From positions 1-22,736 of IMG/VR virus record IMGVR_UViG_3300035698_003776: 22,736 bases of DNA; one strand, given 5' to 3'. Positions within the stretch are counted from its first letter, which is position 1; each line of letters opens with the position of its first letter. The notes beneath the pieces are model-generated. The model was not told where the DNA came from. It did no database searches and saw only the letters and a program-made list of their open reading frames with translations. A program made the translations under genes and the position numbers. Below are positions 1,744-9,275 of the stretch, in pieces. This stretch comes from a virus.

Positions 1744-2138
1744 TGGATCCCAAGACTCAAGCAGCAGTGATGGGCGCGTTGCGGCGCGTCTGGCACCGCC
1801 ACCCTAGACGGATTGCAATCCTAAAGGCCGCGGAGATAAGGGAGCCCCACTACCGAAAGGATGGGTCACGCGCTGCAAGAGACTTGGTATACTTTATATG
1901 TGCGGAGTGTGGGGGAAAGGCCAAGTCTAATACTAACGCTGAGTACCCTCAAGCACACGTGGATCATATCGACCCAGTTATTCCTATCGATGGCCCACGC
2001 CCCCCTTGGGGAACCCTAGTAGAGCGGCTATTCTGCTCTGATGATAATCTCCAAGTACTGTGTGGTACTTGTCACAAAGCCAAGACCAAGGCGGAAAATG
2101 CCGAACGTCGGGCGTATAAGAAGGATCACCATGACTAG
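1743..2138 (+). CDS. HNH endonuclease
   Basis: A 131-residue protein with a zinc-bound HNH nuclease fold. C53-x2-C56 (CAEC) and C107-x2-C110 (CGTC) are the predicted structural zinc ligands. The catalytic beta-beta-alpha elements are HVDHIDPV (D74, H75), DN (N102) and the final H111 of CHKAKT. The N-terminal half is basic and may bind DNA. The ATG overlaps the previous TAA by one base, suggesting translational coupling. Free-standing phage HNH proteins can be homing endonucleases, junction-processing nucleases or packaging partners. Its place inside the replication block, with no visible intron beside it, favours a replication or recombination role, but the sequence does not decide this. Confidence 0.88.
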   Translation: MDPKTQAAVMGALRRVWHRHPRRIAILKAAEIREPHYRKDGSRAARDLVYFICAECGGKAKSNTNAEYPQAHVDHIDPVIPIDGPRPPWGTLVERLFCSDDNLQVLCGTCHKAKTKAENAERRAYKKDHHD

Positions 2139-3549
2139 ACGATTCTTAGATGTGTTGGACGGTAGCGGTAAACCCGCCCGAGAGGTACAAACAACCTACT
2201 TCAACCACCTTGAGAAGACTATGGGGACGCATCGGGTTCATGGTGCCATGATGCCCCCCGGAGCTGGTAAGTCGTACATTGCCCGCACTATCCAACGCAC
2301 AGTACCAAACGCTGTTATCATAACTCCGAACAACGGATTGGTTGATCAATACACGGATACCTACCCAGACCTTAATGGCCTAAAAGGTAAGGACTACTAC
2401 GAGACCGAAGACGAATACCGAGCATCTAGGGTTCGCGCACTGTCTCATGACAACGTATTCAATCCACTGTCTTACTATTACTTTTACCTACAACGCCCAG
2501 AGCTACCACGACCGTCTACTGTCATCATTGACGAGGCGCATCGTATAGGTGATATGCTTATGCTTACTATAGCAAAGAGCCTGCAGTGTAACAAGCTTGG
2601 TATCCCCCTGGAACTAGATGAAAAAGAAATACAGCAATGGCTCGAAAATCAAGTCGCCAAGCTCGCACCATTTTATGAGCCGGAGAGTGGGCGCAAAACT
2701 AAGCTAGTACTTAGTGGGCAATATGAGCAACTGCAATTACTCACAGTATACCTGCGTAACAATATACGCAAGGTCAAGATATTCTATGAGCGCAAGGAGG
2801 ACTACAAGGGTAGGAAACAGACGTTCCTTACAGTACAGCCCCTGGAAGTCCCAACGGATCTTATGAACATAATCTTTGGGGCCGACACTCGGATCTTATT
2901 ATTTAGCGGTAGCATGACAACCGCCCACACCGATGTACTATTCCCCAAGGAAAAGAAGATCGACTTTGTGTACTTCGAGCCGCTGGCTACAGCCGATATT
3001 TTATATAGACCTATTGATAGAAAATTACGGCGTGACCCTCAAGTTATCGCAGACAGTATCCGAAGAGAGTATGTAGACCGAGGTAAGCCTAATACAATGG
3101 TGCATTTGACATACCATATGGCAAGAGAAATTGCACCCTTATTGAAAGACCTTAAGCCCGTGACTCATACCAAAGACAATAAGCTAACACAGCTTGAGGT
3201 ATTCAAGGCCAAGGGTGGTATTATCCTAGCCAGTGGTATGGCCGAGGGTGTTGATCTACCTGGTGATATGTGTAGACTACTTATGATCCCGTTACTACTG
3301 TATCCCAACCGCGGTGATCAGGCCGTACAGAAGCGGCTGGCAATGCCGGGCGGACAGGATTGGTACACACTAGAAACAGCAATGACAACCATCCAACAAC
3401 TCGGACGAGGTGTACGAGGCGCGTCCGATAGTTGTGTGGCGGTTATATTCGACGCGATGTTCCCTCGCCTATTCCAGGATCGGGTGGTTACACCGCATTT
3501 AACTAACGGCTTTAAGGAGGCTATTCAATGGCACAATGCAAAGAAGTAG
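2131..3549 (+). CDS. Superfamily 2 DNA helicase, DinG/XPD-like
   Basis: A 472-residue ATP-dependent helicase. Motif I is PPGAGKS (residues 42-48), motif II is DEAH (134-137), and the C-terminal part has ASGMAEGVDLPGD followed by QQLGRGVRG (motif VI), the layout of the DinG/XPD/Rad3 HELICc2 domain. The stretch between motifs I and II, where Fe-S members carry four cysteines, reads GKDYYETEDEYRAS and has none, so this is a cluster-free member. ATG 2131 is chosen because AAGGA lies just upstream and it overlaps the HNH stop by 8 bases; the frame is open further upstream to an ATG at 2041, but that would run through the HNH gene. It probably unwinds DNA during replication or recombination. No replicative hexameric helicase is seen in the window, so it may be the main phage helicase. 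Confidence 0.88.
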   Translation: MTRRFLDVLDGSGKPAREVQTTYFNHLEKTMGTHRVHGAMMPPGAGKSYIARTIQRTVPNAVIITPNNGLVDQYTDTYPDLNGLKGKDYYETEDEYRASRVRALSHDNVFNPLSYYYFYLQRPELPRPSTVIIDEAHRIGDMLMLTIAKSLQCNKLGIPLELDEKEIQQWLENQVAKLAPFYEPESGRKTKLVLSGQYEQLQLLTVYLRNNIRKVKIFYERKEDYKGRKQTFLTVQPLEVPTDLMNIIFGADTRILLFSGSMTTAHTDVLFPKEKKIDFVYFEPLATADILYRPIDRKLRRDPQVIADSIRREYVDRGKPNTMVHLTYHMAREIAPLLKDLKPVTHTKDNKLTQLEVFKAKGGIILASGMAEGVDLPGDMCRLLMIPLLLYPNRGDQAVQKRLAMPGGQDWYTLETAMTTIQQLGRGVRGASDSCVAVIFDAMFPRLFQDRVVTPHLTNGFKEAIQWHNAKK

Positions 3550-4247
3550 TTTTAGTAATATCTGACACACAGATACCCTTCGACCACGAGGACTCATTGC
3601 GATTCCTTCGCGCGCTCGAGGCTCATGCGAACCCGACGTTAGTTGTGCAGGTGGGTGATTTAACCGATCAGCATGCCCTCAGTAGATACTACAACGATCC
3701 GGATGGTATGAGTGCAGGTGATGAGCTTAAGGCCACAATCAAACGTCTACGACAGTACTACAAGGCATTCCCTGAGATGAATGTTATCCTAGGCAATCAC
3801 GATGAACGCCTCTATCAAAAAGCTTTTGAGGCGGGTATTCCCAGGAGCTACATTCGAGGGCTAGACGACGTACTGGAATTCCCGGAGGGGTGGGTGCTTC
3901 ACGACGAGCTAGTAATTGACGAGGTAGTGTACGAACACGGGCATGGTCTAGGCAATGGCGGAGGTAACAACACATTCAAGAAAGCCGCGGATGTCAATAT
4001 GTCACATACTGTATATGGGCACTTCCACGCGTCCGCAGGCATCAGGTACTTTGCTAACAAGAAGCATCTAGTGTGGGCCATGAACGTCGGTTGTCTAATG
4101 GACTCGAATAGTTATGCAGCCGCGTACGGTAAGCGGTTTCCGACTAAGCCTATCATTGGGTGTGCAGTTGTCGATCGAGGTGTACCAACGTACTACCCTA
4201 TGATCCTAAACGCCAAGGGCCGCTGGATCGGGAGGTTATTCGCATGA
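3528..4247 (+). CDS. Calcineurin-like metallophosphoesterase
   Basis: A 239-residue protein with the full set of dimetal phosphoesterase motifs: SDTQ (D13, with Q15 where His is usual), GD (D44), GNHDE (N90, H91), HGHG (H137, H139) and GHFH (H165, H167). Such phage enzymes hydrolyse phosphodiesters or phosphomonoesters, with DNA ends, cyclic nucleotides and nucleotides among known family substrates; the actual substrate here is unknown. The start at 3528 is supported by AAGGAGG seven bases upstream and overlaps the helicase end by 22 bases. Membership of the replication block suggests a DNA-end or nucleotide role similar in context to SbcD-like exonucleases, though the length fits a stand-alone phosphatase domain without an SbcD capping domain. 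Confidence 0.9.
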   Translation: MAQCKEVVLVISDTQIPFDHEDSLRFLRALEAHANPTLVVQVGDLTDQHALSRYYNDPDGMSAGDELKATIKRLRQYYKAFPEMNVILGNHDERLYQKAFEAGIPRSYIRGLDDVLEFPEGWVLHDELVIDEVVYEHGHGLGNGGGNNTFKKAADVNMSHTVYGHFHASAGIRYFANKKHLVWAMNVGCLMDSNSYAAAYGKRFPTKPIIGCAVVDRGVPTYYPMILNAKGRWIGRLFA

Positions 4248-5038
4248 ACCTACTAGACCTAGCAGTTAAAATCAAAACAGACGGACTATTCGCAGTTGTC
4301 CTTGGATCGAGTGGTGCAGGTAAATCTCACTTCATAGGAACCTACCCAGGCAAGGTAGCATTCCTTTACGGGGCGGGGGAATCTCACGGCCCCGCCTCGG
4401 CACATAAGAATGGTGGTGATAATCTTTTGGCTATACCTTGGGATCAAGACGGGGGAGTTGTACTGGCTCCCGACAAGATTGTACCTAGGATTAAAAAGAT
4501 ACTCGACCCTGATGTATTGAAGGCGGCCGGTGTTAAATGCGTAGCGCTTGACTCCCTTACTAATTTATGCTTAGACATCAAGAAGACCACCGTGTTCAAG
4601 CAGCGTTGCTCTGATGCAAAGGGCAACCACAATGCCTATAAGGAGACTGAGGCATTGATTGAAATTATTAGTACTATCATCCGCCAGTTGCAGGTGCTCA
4701 ATGATCAGCACGGTATTGATTCAATCTGTACTATCGACCTACAGGTTCAGAGTGTTGCCGATGACGGGTCTATCCTAGAATCGAAACCTGGACTACCTAC
4801 GTTCGGTGTAGGCAAGGCATTGATTCAACAATTCCCTGATATCCTTATGCTAAATAGGCGTTCAGGCCAGACACCTGCATTCGAAAATGCTGCTAGGGTC
4901 GTGAGCAAGAGCCATGATCGAGATAGCAAGGCCACAGTCAAATTCGTAGAATACCACCCACGACTAAGGGGCGTCAATGAGTTACCAGAAATCATGCAAG
5001 CATCTGTACAGCAAATCCTCGACCTCAAAGGAGCTTAG
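4244..5038 (+). CDS. RecA-fold ATPase, Sak4-like recombinase (AAA_24 type)
   Basis: A 264-residue P-loop ATPase. Walker A is GSSGAGKS (residues 21-28) close to the N-terminus, and the Walker B strand is VKCVALDS (D103 region). A compact RecA core beginning almost at residue 1 is typical of phage Sak4-type single-strand annealing or strand-exchange proteins, which work with a phage SSB. ATG 4244 overlaps the previous TGA as ATGA and is preceded by GGAGG; the open frame extends upstream to 4160 but that part overlaps the phosphoesterase. Together with the Cas4-like nuclease and the candidate SSB it forms a plausible end-resection and recombination set. Alternatives within AAA_24 are possible, as the family includes ATPases of unknown function. 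Confidence 0.85.
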   Translation: MNLLDLAVKIKTDGLFAVVLGSSGAGKSHFIGTYPGKVAFLYGAGESHGPASAHKNGGDNLLAIPWDQDGGVVLAPDKIVPRIKKILDPDVLKAAGVKCVALDSLTNLCLDIKKTTVFKQRCSDAKGNHNAYKETEALIEIISTIIRQLQVLNDQHGIDSICTIDLQVQSVADDGSILESKPGLPTFGVGKALIQQFPDILMLNRRSGQTPAFENAARVVSKSHDRDSKATVKFVEYHPRLRGVNELPEIMQASVQQILDLKGA

Positions 5039-5039
5039 G

Positions 5040-5297
5040 TTGAAATATCAATTCCGATGGCTTGCTGCATCCCTAGATTCGTTTCTTCACGGTCTTAGTG
5101 AAGCAGAGAAATACCTAGGAACTAAGGAGTTCACACTCGGCGTCTCTCAGGAGGCGTACGACAACCTTGATCGGAACCTACAACGAAGGGACTCAAGTGC
5201 TCCCCTCACCGTGTGGGGGATCCCGGTGGTGGTTGATGAGGACGCAGTAGGATTCAATACCATATGCCATAAACTAGACGAGTATGGTAGATCATGA
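5040..5297 (+). CDS. Small protein of unknown function between Sak4-like ATPase and polymerase
   Basis: An 85-residue protein that I do not recognise. TTG 5040 is chosen as start because AAAGGAG lies about six bases upstream and it begins just after the ATPase stop; the only upstream ATG (4977) lies inside the ATPase gene and lacks a comparable site. The N-terminal half is rich in aromatic and charged residues, and the centre reads APLTVWGIPVVVDEDA, a short hydrophobic beta-like segment. There are no cysteines except one near the C-terminus and no membrane helix. It overlaps the polymerase start as ATGA, so it is probably translated with it and could be an accessory factor, but this is only context. 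Confidence 0.72.
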   Translation: MKYQFRWLAASLDSFLHGLSEAEKYLGTKEFTLGVSQEAYDNLDRNLQRRDSSAPLTVWGIPVVVDEDAVGFNTICHKLDEYGRS

Positions 5298-6520
5298 TCG
5301 TAGCCTTAGATATTGAAACTTGTACAGACCAAGGCGCTAGCTTTGAGTACTTCCGCAAGGATTTTCGTATCTTCTCTTTGTCCTGCGCATGGCGGGATGA
5401 GGGGGGCAAAATTACTTACTGGTTTAGTGACCACCCTGGGCGCATTGAGGCCAAGCTTGCATCCCTGGCACGTAGTCAGGATCAGCTAGTCGCACATAAC
5501 TTAGCGTTTGAGTATGGGGTGATCACTAAACTATACCCCGCACTTGGCCTCAATTGGTGTGCCGACACTATGCGCCTAGCTCAACTTTACGATGCCGGGG
5601 GGGACGAGTTCGGTGAGCCTACCCTTACCACTGATCAGATGATGGCGTATGAGCTGGGCGAAATAACTGATGCTGATCTCGGCAAGATATGGAACAAGTC
5701 TAAAGGCTTGAGTCTCGAAGCGTGTGCTATGAGGTTTCTATCAGGGGATCAGCATTCCCACAAACTCCCTGCACACAACTGGCTACAAGAGCATCATGGT
5801 ATCAAATCCAAGTTCGGCCAATTCCTTCATCTACTTCCTTTCGAGTACCTTGAGGAATATAATAATGCCGATACCCGTGTGACGCTGCTATTATATGAGC
5901 ATCTTATCCAATGTCTTAAGGAGGCGTCATTCGATTGGGCGCGGGATAATGAGCTATACCAAATGCGTGTACGGCTTATGTCCGGCGCGTACATACGTGG
6001 CGTTAAGGTAGACCGTACATCGTTGTTCGAATACATCAAGCAGGTCGAAGCAGAGATAGAGGCCATGGAGCACCTGTTCTTTGAGGAGTTCGCTGATGCC
6101 CTAGTCAAGGTACAGGAGTACAAGGCGGATCAGTTATATCAAAACTTTATTTGGGATATGAAGCTCAAGTCTGATAGAGCCCGATGTAATCGGTGGGAGA
6201 AAATGATCAACGGTGATTACGATGATAGGTGGAAGCCATTTAATATTGGTAGTAGTCACCAGCTCCGAATTCTGTTCTGTGAAGTACTCGGAATGAACGC
6301 CAAATTCCTAACGCCCAAGGGTAGCCCGTCGTTTAAGTCCACTCACTTGGTACAGTGGGGTAGGGGCGGTGAAATACTCAAGAACCGTAAAAAGCGGATG
6401 ATTGTGCTAGCACAGGCAGTGAACGTATATATTGCTTCAGCATTTGATGGCAGAGTACATCCAAGTATGCGTGTCTCCGGGACAAGAACCAATAGGATAT
6501 CGGGAGGTTACAATGCCTAA
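5294..6520 (+). CDS. Family A DNA polymerase, N-terminal part: 3'-5' exonuclease and thumb/early palm
   Basis: A 408-residue protein carrying the proofreading exonuclease of a PolA-type enzyme: Exo I is DIET (D6, E8), Exo II is HNLAFE (N69 to E73) and Exo III is YNNAD (Y189, D193). The C-terminal third corresponds to the thumb and reaches the conserved RVSGTRTNRIS motif (R401 is the equivalent of the T-x-x-GR-[IL]-S arginine), then stops seven residues later at TAA 6518-6520. Motifs A, B and C of the polymerase are absent from this chain and lie in the next frame, which begins at 6513. A normal phage PolA would be a single chain of about 720 residues. The split may be real, joined by recoding, or due to a one-base sequence error; see findings. 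Confidence 0.88.
   Translation: MIVALDIETCTDQGASFEYFRKDFRIFSLSCAWRDEGGKITYWFSDHPGRIEAKLASLARSQDQLVAHNLAFEYGVITKLYPALGLNWCADTMRLAQLYDAGGDEFGEPTLTTDQMMAYELGEITDADLGKIWNKSKGLSLEACAMRFLSGDQHSHKLPAHNWLQEHHGIKSKFGQFLHLLPFEYLEEYNNADTRVTLLLYEHLIQCLKEASFDWARDNELYQMRVRLMSGAYIRGVKVDRTSLFEYIKQVEAEIEAMEHLFFEEFADALVKVQEYKADQLYQNFIWDMKLKSDRARCNRWEKMINGDYDDRWKPFNIGSSHQLRILFCEVLGMNAKFLTPKGSPSFKSTHLVQWGRGGEILKNRKKRMIVLAQAVNVYIASAFDGRVHPSMRVSGTRTNRISGGYNA
6502..6507 (+). promoter_or_regulatory. Internal Shine-Dalgarno inside the first polymerase frame
   Basis: GGGAGG lies five bases before ATG 6513, an excellent ribosome-binding arrangement for the second polymerase frame. The same bases also encode the conserved S-G-G of the first frame, so the match could be partly fortuitous. 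It is what supports independent or coupled translation of the C-terminal polymerase chain. Confidence 0.6.
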
Positions 6521-7454
6521 GCCTTGGGTCAACATGAAGCCTACCGGATGTAGTGCGATCGATACGACTGTCGAGAAGCTCAACAAAACTAGGGGAGTAC
6601 CTAAAGTTAACCTCCCCGCGCTTGCTAGAAGAGACGTGCCATTTATGGCGTGCTGGATCACGGACGCCGGGTATACTATGGTGTCGTCCGACTTCTCGTC
6701 ACTAGAGCCTAGTATCACTGCGCACTTTTCACAAGACTATTTTTACAAGTACGCGACCTTTGATGGTATTGGTAAAGAGCCGTGGATACACGAGAACGGT
6801 ACCTTGATGATTGATGACATTTATTTGATGACTGCATCTCGTATGCCGGGTATGTCCGAACCGATCGTAAACTTCTTTCGGGACTCAGCTAATTGTAAGC
6901 AGTGGGTTATTAACTCAGAAGTAATTAAAGATCACCCCCTGATTAAGCCGATAAGGAAGCAGGCGAAACCTGCATGTCTAGGGTTCAATTACGGCATGGG
7001 GCCAAAACGATTTGTAACCCAGGCATACGACGCAGGGTTATCTGTTACGCACTCAGAGGCAAAAGCAATGTTTGTATCGTACTGGGATTTGTTCTCAGGT
7101 ATCCGCGACTTCACTAAGCGATTGGAATATATAATTAAAAAGCAAGGTGCTATTATTAATCCCTTTGGGTATAGACTAACGCCCGAGCCCCGCAAGGGCT
7201 ACAATGCCTATATCCAATCAAGTGCCTCAGGTGTAGTGGACGTACTTAGCTTACTATTCTTTGATCGGTGTAAGTACGCAAAATTCATAGCCTTCATTCA
7301 TGATGAGATCATCTACGCCGTGCCTGACAATAAACTTCAGGACGCGAAGATAATACAAGACGAGTGTGTAGAAGAGTTAAACAAGCTCCTGGGGTTCACG
7401 GTGCCAATGCGGCTCGGGTTCGTTGCGGGCAAATCATTCAAGGATTTCAAATGA
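6513..7454 (+). CDS. Family A DNA polymerase, C-terminal part: palm and fingers, Leu762-type
   Basis: A 313-residue chain holding all three PolA catalytic motifs: motif A SSDFSSLEP (D60), motif B RKQAKPACLGFNYG (R148, K152, Y160) and motif C FIHDE (H263, D264, E265). Aligning motif B on K152 and Y160 places L156 at the position of Phe762 in E. coli Pol I. ATG 6513 overlaps the end of the N-terminal half by eight bases, in the +1 frame relative to it, and follows a GGGAGG. Because the template-binding GTRTNRIS motif is on the upstream chain, both parts are expected to be needed for normal activity. It ends in an ATGA overlap with the diphosphohydrolase-like gene. An alternative is that a +1 shift near 6512-6518 makes one continuous product. 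Confidence 0.88.
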   Translation: MPKPWVNMKPTGCSAIDTTVEKLNKTRGVPKVNLPALARRDVPFMACWITDAGYTMVSSDFSSLEPSITAHFSQDYFYKYATFDGIGKEPWIHENGTLMIDDIYLMTASRMPGMSEPIVNFFRDSANCKQWVINSEVIKDHPLIKPIRKQAKPACLGFNYGMGPKRFVTQAYDAGLSVTHSEAKAMFVSYWDLFSGIRDFTKRLEYIIKKQGAIINPFGYRLTPEPRKGYNAYIQSSASGVVDVLSLLFFDRCKYAKFIAFIHDEIIYAVPDNKLQDAKIIQDECVEELNKLLGFTVPMRLGFVAGKSFKDFK

Positions 7455-8011
7455 GTTACAGTGTAGAACGAGATGAAGACGGCGGACTTAGAATGAGTAG
7501 TGAGAGAACGCGTGAGCAGCTACTACCTACCCATGACAGCCCTAAGCGAACCGTCGAAGATGCTCAGAAAGAGTGCCAACCCCAGACAGATTATGTCAAT
7601 GCGGGTGGTGTAGGGGAGGATGAGATAGACATGCAAACCTACACAAGGGAGCTGATAGAGAAAATCGAGGCGGAGTGTGCGAAGGATGTGGATGGGGAAT
7701 TCCAGGCGCTACATGCAGTCCGACATAATAAGGATAAGCCGCAGCTATCATTGATCCCATCATTGGCGCAAGAGTCTGAGGCACGCGTGTGGATGCTGGG
7801 TGCTGAGAAGTATGGCAGAGATAACTGGCGGAAACTATGGGGAGAGTCTACTGTATCTGTGATTATGGATTCCCTGTTGCGCCATGCTAATGCTATACTG
7901 AAAGGGGAACTGATTGATCCGGAATCCGGTGAGCCTCACTCCTCCCATATCCGCTGTAACGCCGCCATGTTAACTGAGTACACACTGCGTGATACAGAAA
8001 CTTTTAAGTAA
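7451..8011 (+). CDS. dATP/dGTP diphosphohydrolase-like protein (DUF5664/MazZ-like)
   Basis: A 186-residue protein whose C-terminal 100 residues match the phage nucleotide-diphosphohydrolase family typified by MazZ of cyanophage S-2L. Visible motifs are NKDKPQLSLIP (93-103), GAEKYGRDNW (117-126), DSLLRH (140-145) and DPESGEPHSSH (156-166), with the acidic and His residues expected for metal-dependent pyrophosphohydrolysis of purine dNTPs. The first 85 residues are charged, low in hydrophobics and probably flexible; the family core is usually near the N-terminus, so this is an extension. The start at 7451 is an ATGA overlap with the polymerase. Position beside the polymerase fits nucleotide-pool control. 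No PurZ- or DatZ-like gene is present in the window, so a 2-aminoadenine genome is not indicated. Confidence 0.85.
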   Translation: MSYSVERDEDGGLRMSSERTREQLLPTHDSPKRTVEDAQKECQPQTDYVNAGGVGEDEIDMQTYTRELIEKIEAECAKDVDGEFQALHAVRHNKDKPQLSLIPSLAQESEARVWMLGAEKYGRDNWRKLWGESTVSVIMDSLLRHANAILKGELIDPESGEPHSSHIRCNAAMLTEYTLRDTETFK

Positions 8012-8475: not shown

Positions 8476-8632
8476 GTTCAACGGGCTATATCATGCAATC
8501 GGCGTTACAGAGTGTGGTGCCATATTACACGAGCGATTCGAATCTGCTGATGCAGCTTCTGCGTATCTTATATCAATGTCGGTGCGCCCCAAAACTCGGG
8601 ACGACTACGTCAAATCACCAAGGAGTAATTGA
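8462..8632 (+). CDS. Small protein of unknown function (56 residues)
   Basis: A short frame starting at ATG 8462, preceded by GAGGG five bases upstream and overlapping the end of the zincin-like gene by 14 bases. The protein begins MKILKFNGLYHAIGV and ends with a basic PKTRDDYVKSPRSN. It fills the only space between the zincin and the ClpP-like gene, and its stop at 8630-8632 lies just before the next start at 8634. No domain is recognised; a beta-strand start and a central helix (ESADAASAYLISMS) are the visible elements. The coding call rests on its start context and on neat packing between the neighbouring genes. Confidence 0.65.
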   Translation: MKILKFNGLYHAIGVTECGAILHERFESADAASAYLISMSVRPKTRDDYVKSPRSN

Positions 8633-8633
8633 G

Positions 8634-9275
8634 ATGGTACGATTGTTTATTGTGCTATCAGTAATGGTAGCGGGTGTTTCCTTTGCTAAGATCGACCCAA
8701 AGAGTGTATTCAAAATCGAGGGGACGATAACCGAATCCCCTAACTTCATGCTCTCCATACTTGCCAGGGGCGCTCCCGTGACCCAGATCTCACTGATAAC
8801 CAAAAAGATTACTGAATACACTAAGGTCAAGCGCAAGTCCATAACATTACTAATCAACACCTCAGGTGGTGAGACCGGGCCGGAGTTTCATAAATTCATA
8901 GCCACACTTCTGACACTGAAGCAAGGCGGTACAGTCGTGCGGTGCATCATCACGGGCCGGGCGCTAAGTGCTGGGGCGGGGATCTTCAGCAATTGTAATG
9001 TCCGCCTGGCCAAGCCCGGAGCACTTATTATGTGGCATCTAACGGCAGTGGCGGTAGTGGGTGGGCGTTACAATGCCGGGGCGGCTAGAGACCTTGCGCA
9101 TAAGATACTACGCCTGGCCGATGAGATACATGGAACCTCAAAGCGACTATGGGCGCCGATGGTAGACCTCCTCCGTGATGATGACTACTTCCTGCAGCAC
9201 CTCCATGCTCAGACCCGCCTCAAAGTATCCGACGTGATTAAGCATGTCCCTGGGTTTGCGAGGATGATTCCATGA
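8634..9275 (+). CDS. ClpP-like serine protease with N-terminal signal peptide
   Basis: A 213-residue protein. Residues 1-18 are a short basic start plus hydrophobic stretch ending in VSFA, a good Sec signal peptide with cleavage expected after Ala18. The rest resembles the ClpP/crotonase fold: INTSGGE (74-80) is the substrate-strand/oxyanion loop, GRALSAGAG (108-116) contains the putative nucleophile S112 where ClpP has ASMGA, and IMWHLT (132-137) holds H135 where ClpP has MIHQP. DDDYF (182-186) is near the expected third acidic residue. ATG 8634 follows AAGGAG by eight bases and gives exactly the signal peptide; the frame upstream to 8493 would bury it. Export makes a head-maturation role unlikely; envelope or periplasmic proteolysis, for example in lysis or exclusion, is an inference. 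Confidence 0.82.
   Translation: MVRLFIVLSVMVAGVSFAKIDPKSVFKIEGTITESPNFMLSILARGAPVTQISLITKKITEYTKVKRKSITLLINTSGGETGPEFHKFIATLLTLKQGGTVVRCIITGRALSAGAGIFSNCNVRLAKPGALIMWHLTAVAVVGGRYNAGAARDLAHKILRLADEIHGTSKRLWAPMVDLLRDDDYFLQHLHAQTRLKVSDVIKHVPGFARMIP

What the first reader, a model, noticed from the sequence alone, without database searches (positions are those of the whole stretch)
5294..7454. Family A DNA polymerase divided over two overlapping frames at the thumb/palm junction
Exonuclease motifs and the conserved GTRTNRIS motif are in 5294-6520, while motifs A, B and C are in 6513-7454. The cut falls right after the GTRTNRIS block, which must contact primer-template with the palm, so both chains should be required. 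The second frame has its own ATG with GGGAGG five bases upstream, which supports a true two-subunit polymerase by coupled translation. However, that site also encodes the conserved S-G-G, and dropping one base near 6515 would give a smooth SGGYNPKPW continuation, so a sequence error or +1 recoding remains open.
Basis: partly seen in the sequence, partly recalled or inferred. Interest (0 to 1): 0.8.

Follow-up and report, generated by a model that had tools for sequence, protein, structure and literature searches.

The report
Phage DNA polymerase in two chains
An uncultured phage appears to build its own DNA-copying enzyme from two separately translated pieces that share one active site, and a distant cousin phage has its gene cut at the same place, so the cut is very probably real biology and not a sequencing slip.

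Summary
A family A DNA polymerase is encoded by two overlapping frames, 5294-6520 (3'-5' exonuclease, thumb, first palm strand with the Arg668-equivalent) and 6513-7454 (motifs A, B, C). The second frame is +1, with ATG 6513 and GGGAGG five bases upstream. The decisive evidence is one relative, IMG/VR contig L138. Its polymerase is 30% (N) and 37% (C) identical, it has a similar gene order, and its gene is split at the same point, in the same +1 frame, with a GTG start and an SD-like AGGGAG. A sequencing error is therefore very unlikely. All other relatives found, about 80 and distant (about 25% identity), are continuous. The junction falls in a palm loop that varies from 8 to 28 residues in those enzymes and is low-confidence in the AlphaFold model, so the cut is inside the early palm, not exactly at the thumb/palm border. 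Best explanation: translational coupling makes two chains that assemble into one polymerase with a composite active site. A conserved +1 frameshift is the main rival; no slippery site, intron or downstream RNA structure was found. Precedent: OM43 phages MEP401/402 have a two-gene PolA, cut nearby, with an extra ORF between. New variant of a known kind.

The parts
5294..6520 (+). PolN chain, 408 aa: 3'-5' exonuclease domain, thumb, first palm strand; ends ...SGTRTNRISGGYNA-stop
6479..6502 (+). GTRTNRIS block; Arg codon 6494-6496 aligns with E. coli Pol I Arg668
   Evidence: R401 invariant in 42 sequences
6502..6507 (+). Shine-Dalgarno-like GGGAGG; part of the 12-mer ATCGGGAGGTTA that also precedes the RecA-like gene start at 4244
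6513..6520 (+). 8-nt stop/start overlap ATGCCTAA: PolC start codon ATG 6513-6515, PolN stop TAA 6518-6520
6513..7454 (+). PolC chain, 313 aa: rest of palm and fingers; motif A D60 (6690), motif B K152-Y160 (6966-6992), motif C HDE 263-265 (7299-7307)
4244..5038 (+). RecA-like ATPase gene upstream; start overlaps the previous stop (ATGA) and has the same SD 12-mer; homologue in L138
3528..4247 (+). metallophosphoesterase, syntenic in L138 (43% identity)
7451..8011 (+). dATP/dGTP diphosphohydrolase-like gene downstream, ATGA overlap with PolC; homologue directly downstream of PolC in L138

Best explanation
The phage makes its family A replicative polymerase as two chains from one mRNA. Ribosomes finish PolN (exonuclease, thumb, first palm strand) at TAA 6518, and initiation at ATG 6513, served by the strong SD GGGAGG inside the polN coding sequence, makes PolC (rest of palm and fingers), so synthesis of the two is coupled. 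The chains then assemble into a normal Klenow-like fold. The active site is composite: PolN gives the minor-groove Arg (E. coli R668 equivalent) and proofreading; PolC gives the metal-binding Asp residues and the dNTP-binding motif B. Neither chain alone should polymerise DNA efficiently. Shown here by sequence: the split, the frame relation, SD and start, distribution of the motifs, the same split in a relative, and the loop position of the junction. Inferred: coupled initiation, physical association and activity.
For: Two halves of one profile. Strong SD plus ATG at 5-nt spacing with an 8-nt stop/start overlap, rare by chance (hybridisation of -11 kcal/mol or stronger at 0.6-1.1% of NTG codons of the window), in a genome whose genes are packed with 1- and 4-nt overlaps. 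The SD context ATCGGGAGGTTA recurs before the RecA-like gene start. Relative L138 has the same cut and the same +1 frame with GTG 6547, an SD-like AGGGAG 8 nt upstream (-8.2 kcal/mol) and a 14-nt overlap; its SD context GGGAGACTT recurs before its dGTPase-like start. Catalytic residues are intact and invariant on both chains. In the joined read-through model (pLDDT 82, pTM 0.80) the junction lies in a low-confidence loop, 406-438, a loop that varies from 8 to 28 residues in 41 continuous relatives. The fold matches Bst, Taq and phage G20c Pol I (Z about 31-33). No RNA family and no extra sequence between the frames, so no intron or intein. Precedent for a two-gene phage PolA: MEP401/402 (PMC10580990).
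Against: Only one near relative could be found, and both share the +1 relation, which a +1 frameshift would also give. In L138 the two frames align to the continuous consensus without a gap exactly at the stop codon (GRLAGGTS|NIQALARRD), as a fused product would. The L138 start is a GTG with a weaker SD. Start sites, association of the chains and activity were not tested. AlphaFold was run on a joined chain, not as a complex.
Confidence: 0.8

Rival explanations
1. Programmed +1 ribosomal frameshifting at the PolN stop codon makes one continuous polymerase of about 719 residues, with PolN as the unshifted product; the SD-like GGGAGG acts as a stimulator, as in prfB.
For: Same +1 relation in window and L138; in L138 the frames join without loss exactly at the TAA (GRLAGGTS|NIQ); both have SD-like sequence upstream of the stop; in L138 the UAA is followed by C.
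Against: The last sense codons (GCC before UAA G; UCU before UAA C) do not allow good P-site re-pairing in the +1 frame and are not conserved between the two. In the window the SD is 6-7 nt from the last sense codon, not the 3 nt of prfB (prfB details from general knowledge). No unusual downstream structure (z 0.23 and -0.66). A start codon sits at good SD spacing in both.
Confidence: 0.12
2. A one-base sequencing or assembly error splits an ordinary continuous polA.
For: About 80 distant IMG/VR PolA loci are continuous, and a one-base change would join the frames.
Against: The same split at the same position and in the same frame occurs in an independent, about 35% identical relative. No homopolymer longer than 3 is near either junction. 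No other disrupted gene stood out in the ORF list. A strong SD and start coincide with the junction.
Confidence: 0.03
3. Remains of an inserted element: a group I intron, split intein or homing endonuclease broke the gene, as in MIJ3 PolB or as suggested for MEP401.
For: Phage polymerase genes are frequent intron and intein targets (PMC10580990, PMC6892783).
Against: The frames overlap by 8 nt (window) and 14 nt (L138), leaving no room for an element; no Rfam intron match.
Confidence: 0.02

Closest known systems
Split family A DNA polymerase of Methylophilales (OM43) phages MEP401/MEP402, Zobellviridae (PMC10580990)
   Same: Two genes: the first holds exonuclease, thumb and the TGR block, the second motifs A-C. 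The split is reported in most group I members. MEP401 sequence read here: gp13 ends ...CRTKTGRLSSSSPNLQNFDGEIKTLFLSRYGE, gp15 begins MILNADAKALEW.
   Different: In MEP401 the cut lies further on, just before motif A, and a small ORF (gp14) sits between with no overlap. Here the cut is before the NLQ-equivalent segment and the frames overlap.
Continuous phage Pol I of actinophages (e.g. Gordonia phage Orla, Microbacterium phage Huwbert) and phage G20c Pol I (PDB 7r0k)
   Same: Same fold and motifs; 28-32% identity of the C half to Orla and Huwbert; the same variable loop after GTVTGRLSSG.
   Different: One continuous chain; Phe at the 762 position in Orla and Huwbert, where window and L138 have Leu.
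Split polymerases of other families in phages: split PolB with intein (MIJ3, PMC6892783) and split Pol III alpha (jumbo phages, PMC7824862)
   Same: A polymerase divided over two genes.
   Different: Other polymerase families; MIJ3 has intein motifs, the Pol III parts are distant genes.

Membership tests
Family A DNA polymerase (PolA) | motifs A, B, C with two catalytic Asp, Arg/Lys/Tyr of motif B, and the TGR Arg | tested here: met
   R401, D466, E471, R554, K558, Y566, H669, D670 (joined numbering) invariant in 42 sequences; Pfam DNA_pol_A 1.3e-18; the Gly of TGR is Asn here
Family A DNA polymerase (PolA) | 3'-5' exonuclease motifs I-III | tested here: met
   D6/E8, N69, Y189/D193 invariant; the motif II Asp is Glu73 (3 of 42 sequences)
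Family A DNA polymerase (PolA) | Klenow-like fold | tested here: met
   joined model pLDDT 82; Bst Z 32.6, 3.0 A over 496 residues; Taq Z 31.1; G20c Pol I Z 30.8
Two-gene (split) phage PolA | exonuclease, thumb and TGR block on one ORF, motifs A-C on the next | tested here: met
Two-gene (split) phage PolA | layout kept in relatives | tested here: met
   L138; only one near relative available
MEP401-type (Zobellviridae) split DNAP | inserted small ORF and cut just before motif A | tested here: not met
   frames overlap and the cut is earlier in the palm
prfB-type +1 programmed frameshift | shift codon that re-pairs in +1 and SD 3 nt upstream | tested here: not met
   GCC UAA G, SD 6-7 nt away; L138 UCU UAA C
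Intron- or intein-split polymerase gene | intervening sequence or intein motifs | tested here: not met
   8- and 14-nt overlaps; no Rfam match
Two-subunit polymerase | the two chains associate and are both needed for activity | not testable with these tools
   needs co-expression and assay

The most novel reading that the evidence does not exclude
The split site is a new kind of conserved +1 recoding at a UAA stop without P-site re-pairing, giving both a free exonuclease-thumb protein and a full-length replicase, perhaps alongside independent initiation of PolC, so that one site sets the ratio of proofreading subunit, catalytic subunit and fused enzyme.
Probability: 0.08. Interest if true: 0.78.

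Novelty: new variant of a known kind. Interest (0 to 1): 0.6.

Why it matters
A replicative polymerase whose active site is shared by two coupled chains is unusual. A second lineage in addition to MEP401, with a different cut site and no intervening ORF, suggests that the early-palm region is a place where PolA can be divided repeatedly. It gives a concrete, small system for asking how a split polymerase assembles and whether splitting separates proofreading from synthesis. It also shows that two-frame polA genes in metagenomes should not automatically be treated as errors.

Tried and rejected
Phage records: only 20-28% identity for the C half, nothing at 1e-5 for the N half; searching with the L138 halves gave no split relative either. 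Genome-level relatives by portal: none; by terminase and helicase: weak matches only. Recoding: no unusual RNA structure downstream of either stop. Intron or intein: rejected (frame overlap). Upstream alternative start ATG 6447 in the PolC frame has no evident SD and would overlap polN by about 74 nt; 6513 is preferred. PolN alone has no Pfam match; it is recognised by PHROG and by alignment.

Full report
Observation. The window carries two overlapping frames, 5294-6520 (408 aa) and 6513-7454 (313 aa), the second +1 to the first, with an 8-nt overlap ATGCCTAA. The first matches positions 672-977 and the second 998-1232 of the same PHROG DNA polymerase profile; the second also matches Pfam DNA_pol_A. 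GGGAGG (6502-6507) lies five bases before ATG 6513.

Is the split real? The genome uses SD sequences widely, and PolC has one of its strongest: GGAGGT, -11.0 kcal/mol with the anti-SD. On the geneless strand only two ATGs in 22.7 kb carry an SD of six or more bases; -11 kcal/mol or stronger is reached at 0.6-1.1% of ATG/GTG codons of the window. The 12-mer ATCGGGAGGTTA recurs just before the RecA-like gene start at 4244. Several neighbouring genes overlap by 1 or 4 nt, so a coupled start inside the previous gene is normal here.

The decisive comparison. Exact-peptide scans and phage records gave only distant, continuous polymerases: the loci examined held no split. A degenerate pattern for motif B with Leu at position 762 brought in contig L138. 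L138 is 30% identical to PolN over residues 2-403 (E 3e-39) and 37% identical to PolC over 29-313 (E 9e-57). Homologues of the RecB-like nuclease, metallophosphoesterase, RecA-like, PolN, PolC and dGTPase-like genes lie in the same order. Its polymerase is cut at the same place: PolN ends ...CGTISGRLAGGTS-stop at 6560, and the +1 frame continues with GTG 6547 ...GRLNIQALARRD, preceded by an SD-like AGGGAG (-8.2 kcal/mol). Its SD context GGGAGACTT recurs before its dGTPase-like start. Two independent assemblies sharing the same cut and frame at about 35% protein identity are not explained by error.

Where the cut lies. In a 42-sequence alignment R401 of PolN and D466, E471, R554, K558, Y566, H669, D670 of the joined numbering (PolC) are invariant. 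Alignment of the profile with E. coli Klenow places R401 at Arg668. The loop between this Arg and the Pro of the NLQxVP segment has 8-28 residues in the continuous relatives and 39 in the window. The AlphaFold2 model of the read-through protein (pLDDT 82, pTM 0.80) has pLDDT under 50 at 406-438, which holds the junction at 408/409, and matches Bst, Taq and phage G20c Pol I. The gene is thus cut in a flexible, naturally variable loop of the early palm, a place where a chain break should be tolerated. The read-through sequence was made with a four-letter code word (TAAG read as K) for this purpose only.

Mechanism. The best-supported model is coupled translation of two chains that assemble into one enzyme. 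PolN carries proofreading, thumb and the minor-groove Arg; PolC carries catalysis and nucleotide binding, so both should be needed (inference from established Pol I biochemistry). +1 frameshifting is the main rival, because both phages share the +1 relation and L138 aligns through the stop without a gap. But the last sense codons (GCC, UCU) cannot re-pair well in +1, differ between the phages, and no unusual downstream structure is found. An intron or intein is made unlikely by the overlap and the absence of Rfam matches.

Known context. Split DNA polymerases have been described in phages MEP401/402 and related metagenomic genomes (PMC10580990). Reading MEP401 shows a cut just before motif A with a 77-aa ORF between: the same division of labour, a different cut and layout. 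Split PolB with an intein (PMC6892783) and split Pol III alpha (PMC7824862) are other families. Searches of the held literature gave no other report of a split phage PolA, which does not cover subscription journals. Leu at position 762 with RecB-like and superfamily II helicase neighbours fits the Leu762 group of virioplankton PolA (PMC6302109).

Limits. Coupled initiation, chain association and activity are inferred.

Noticed in passing
window 6978-6980 (PolC L156) and L138 motif B: Leu at the E. coli 762 position in both split polymerases (40 of 42 aligned sequences have Phe); with a RecB-like nuclease and a Rad3-type SF2 helicase nearby this fits the Leu762 virioplankton group.
   Followed up: partly
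window just upstream of 4244 and 6499-6510: The 12-mer ATCGGGAGGTTA precedes both the RecA-like and PolC starts; in L138 GGGAGACTT precedes both the PolC and dGTPase-like starts. SD regions of replication genes look alike within each phage.
   Followed up: partly
window 8493-9275: ORF with a hydrophobic N-terminal stretch followed by a ClpP-like protease domain (weak PHROG hits, best 2e-5), lying between the replication genes and the terminase.
   Followed up: no
window 2131-3549: Rad3/DinG-type helicase (Helicase_C_2) whose phage matches are weak (haloarchaeal viruses, jumbo and other phages at about 25%); L138 has a primase-like and a RuvC-like gene in the corresponding place.
   Followed up: partly
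window 4977-5297: 106-aa ORF between the RecA-like gene and PolN, with no Pfam or PHROG match and no counterpart in L138.
   Followed up: partly
window 6756-6960 (PolC about 82-149): Insertion of about 36 residues between motifs A and B (TFDGIGKEPWIHENGTLMIDDIYL...), largely shared with L138 and absent from the continuous actinophage relatives.
   Followed up: no
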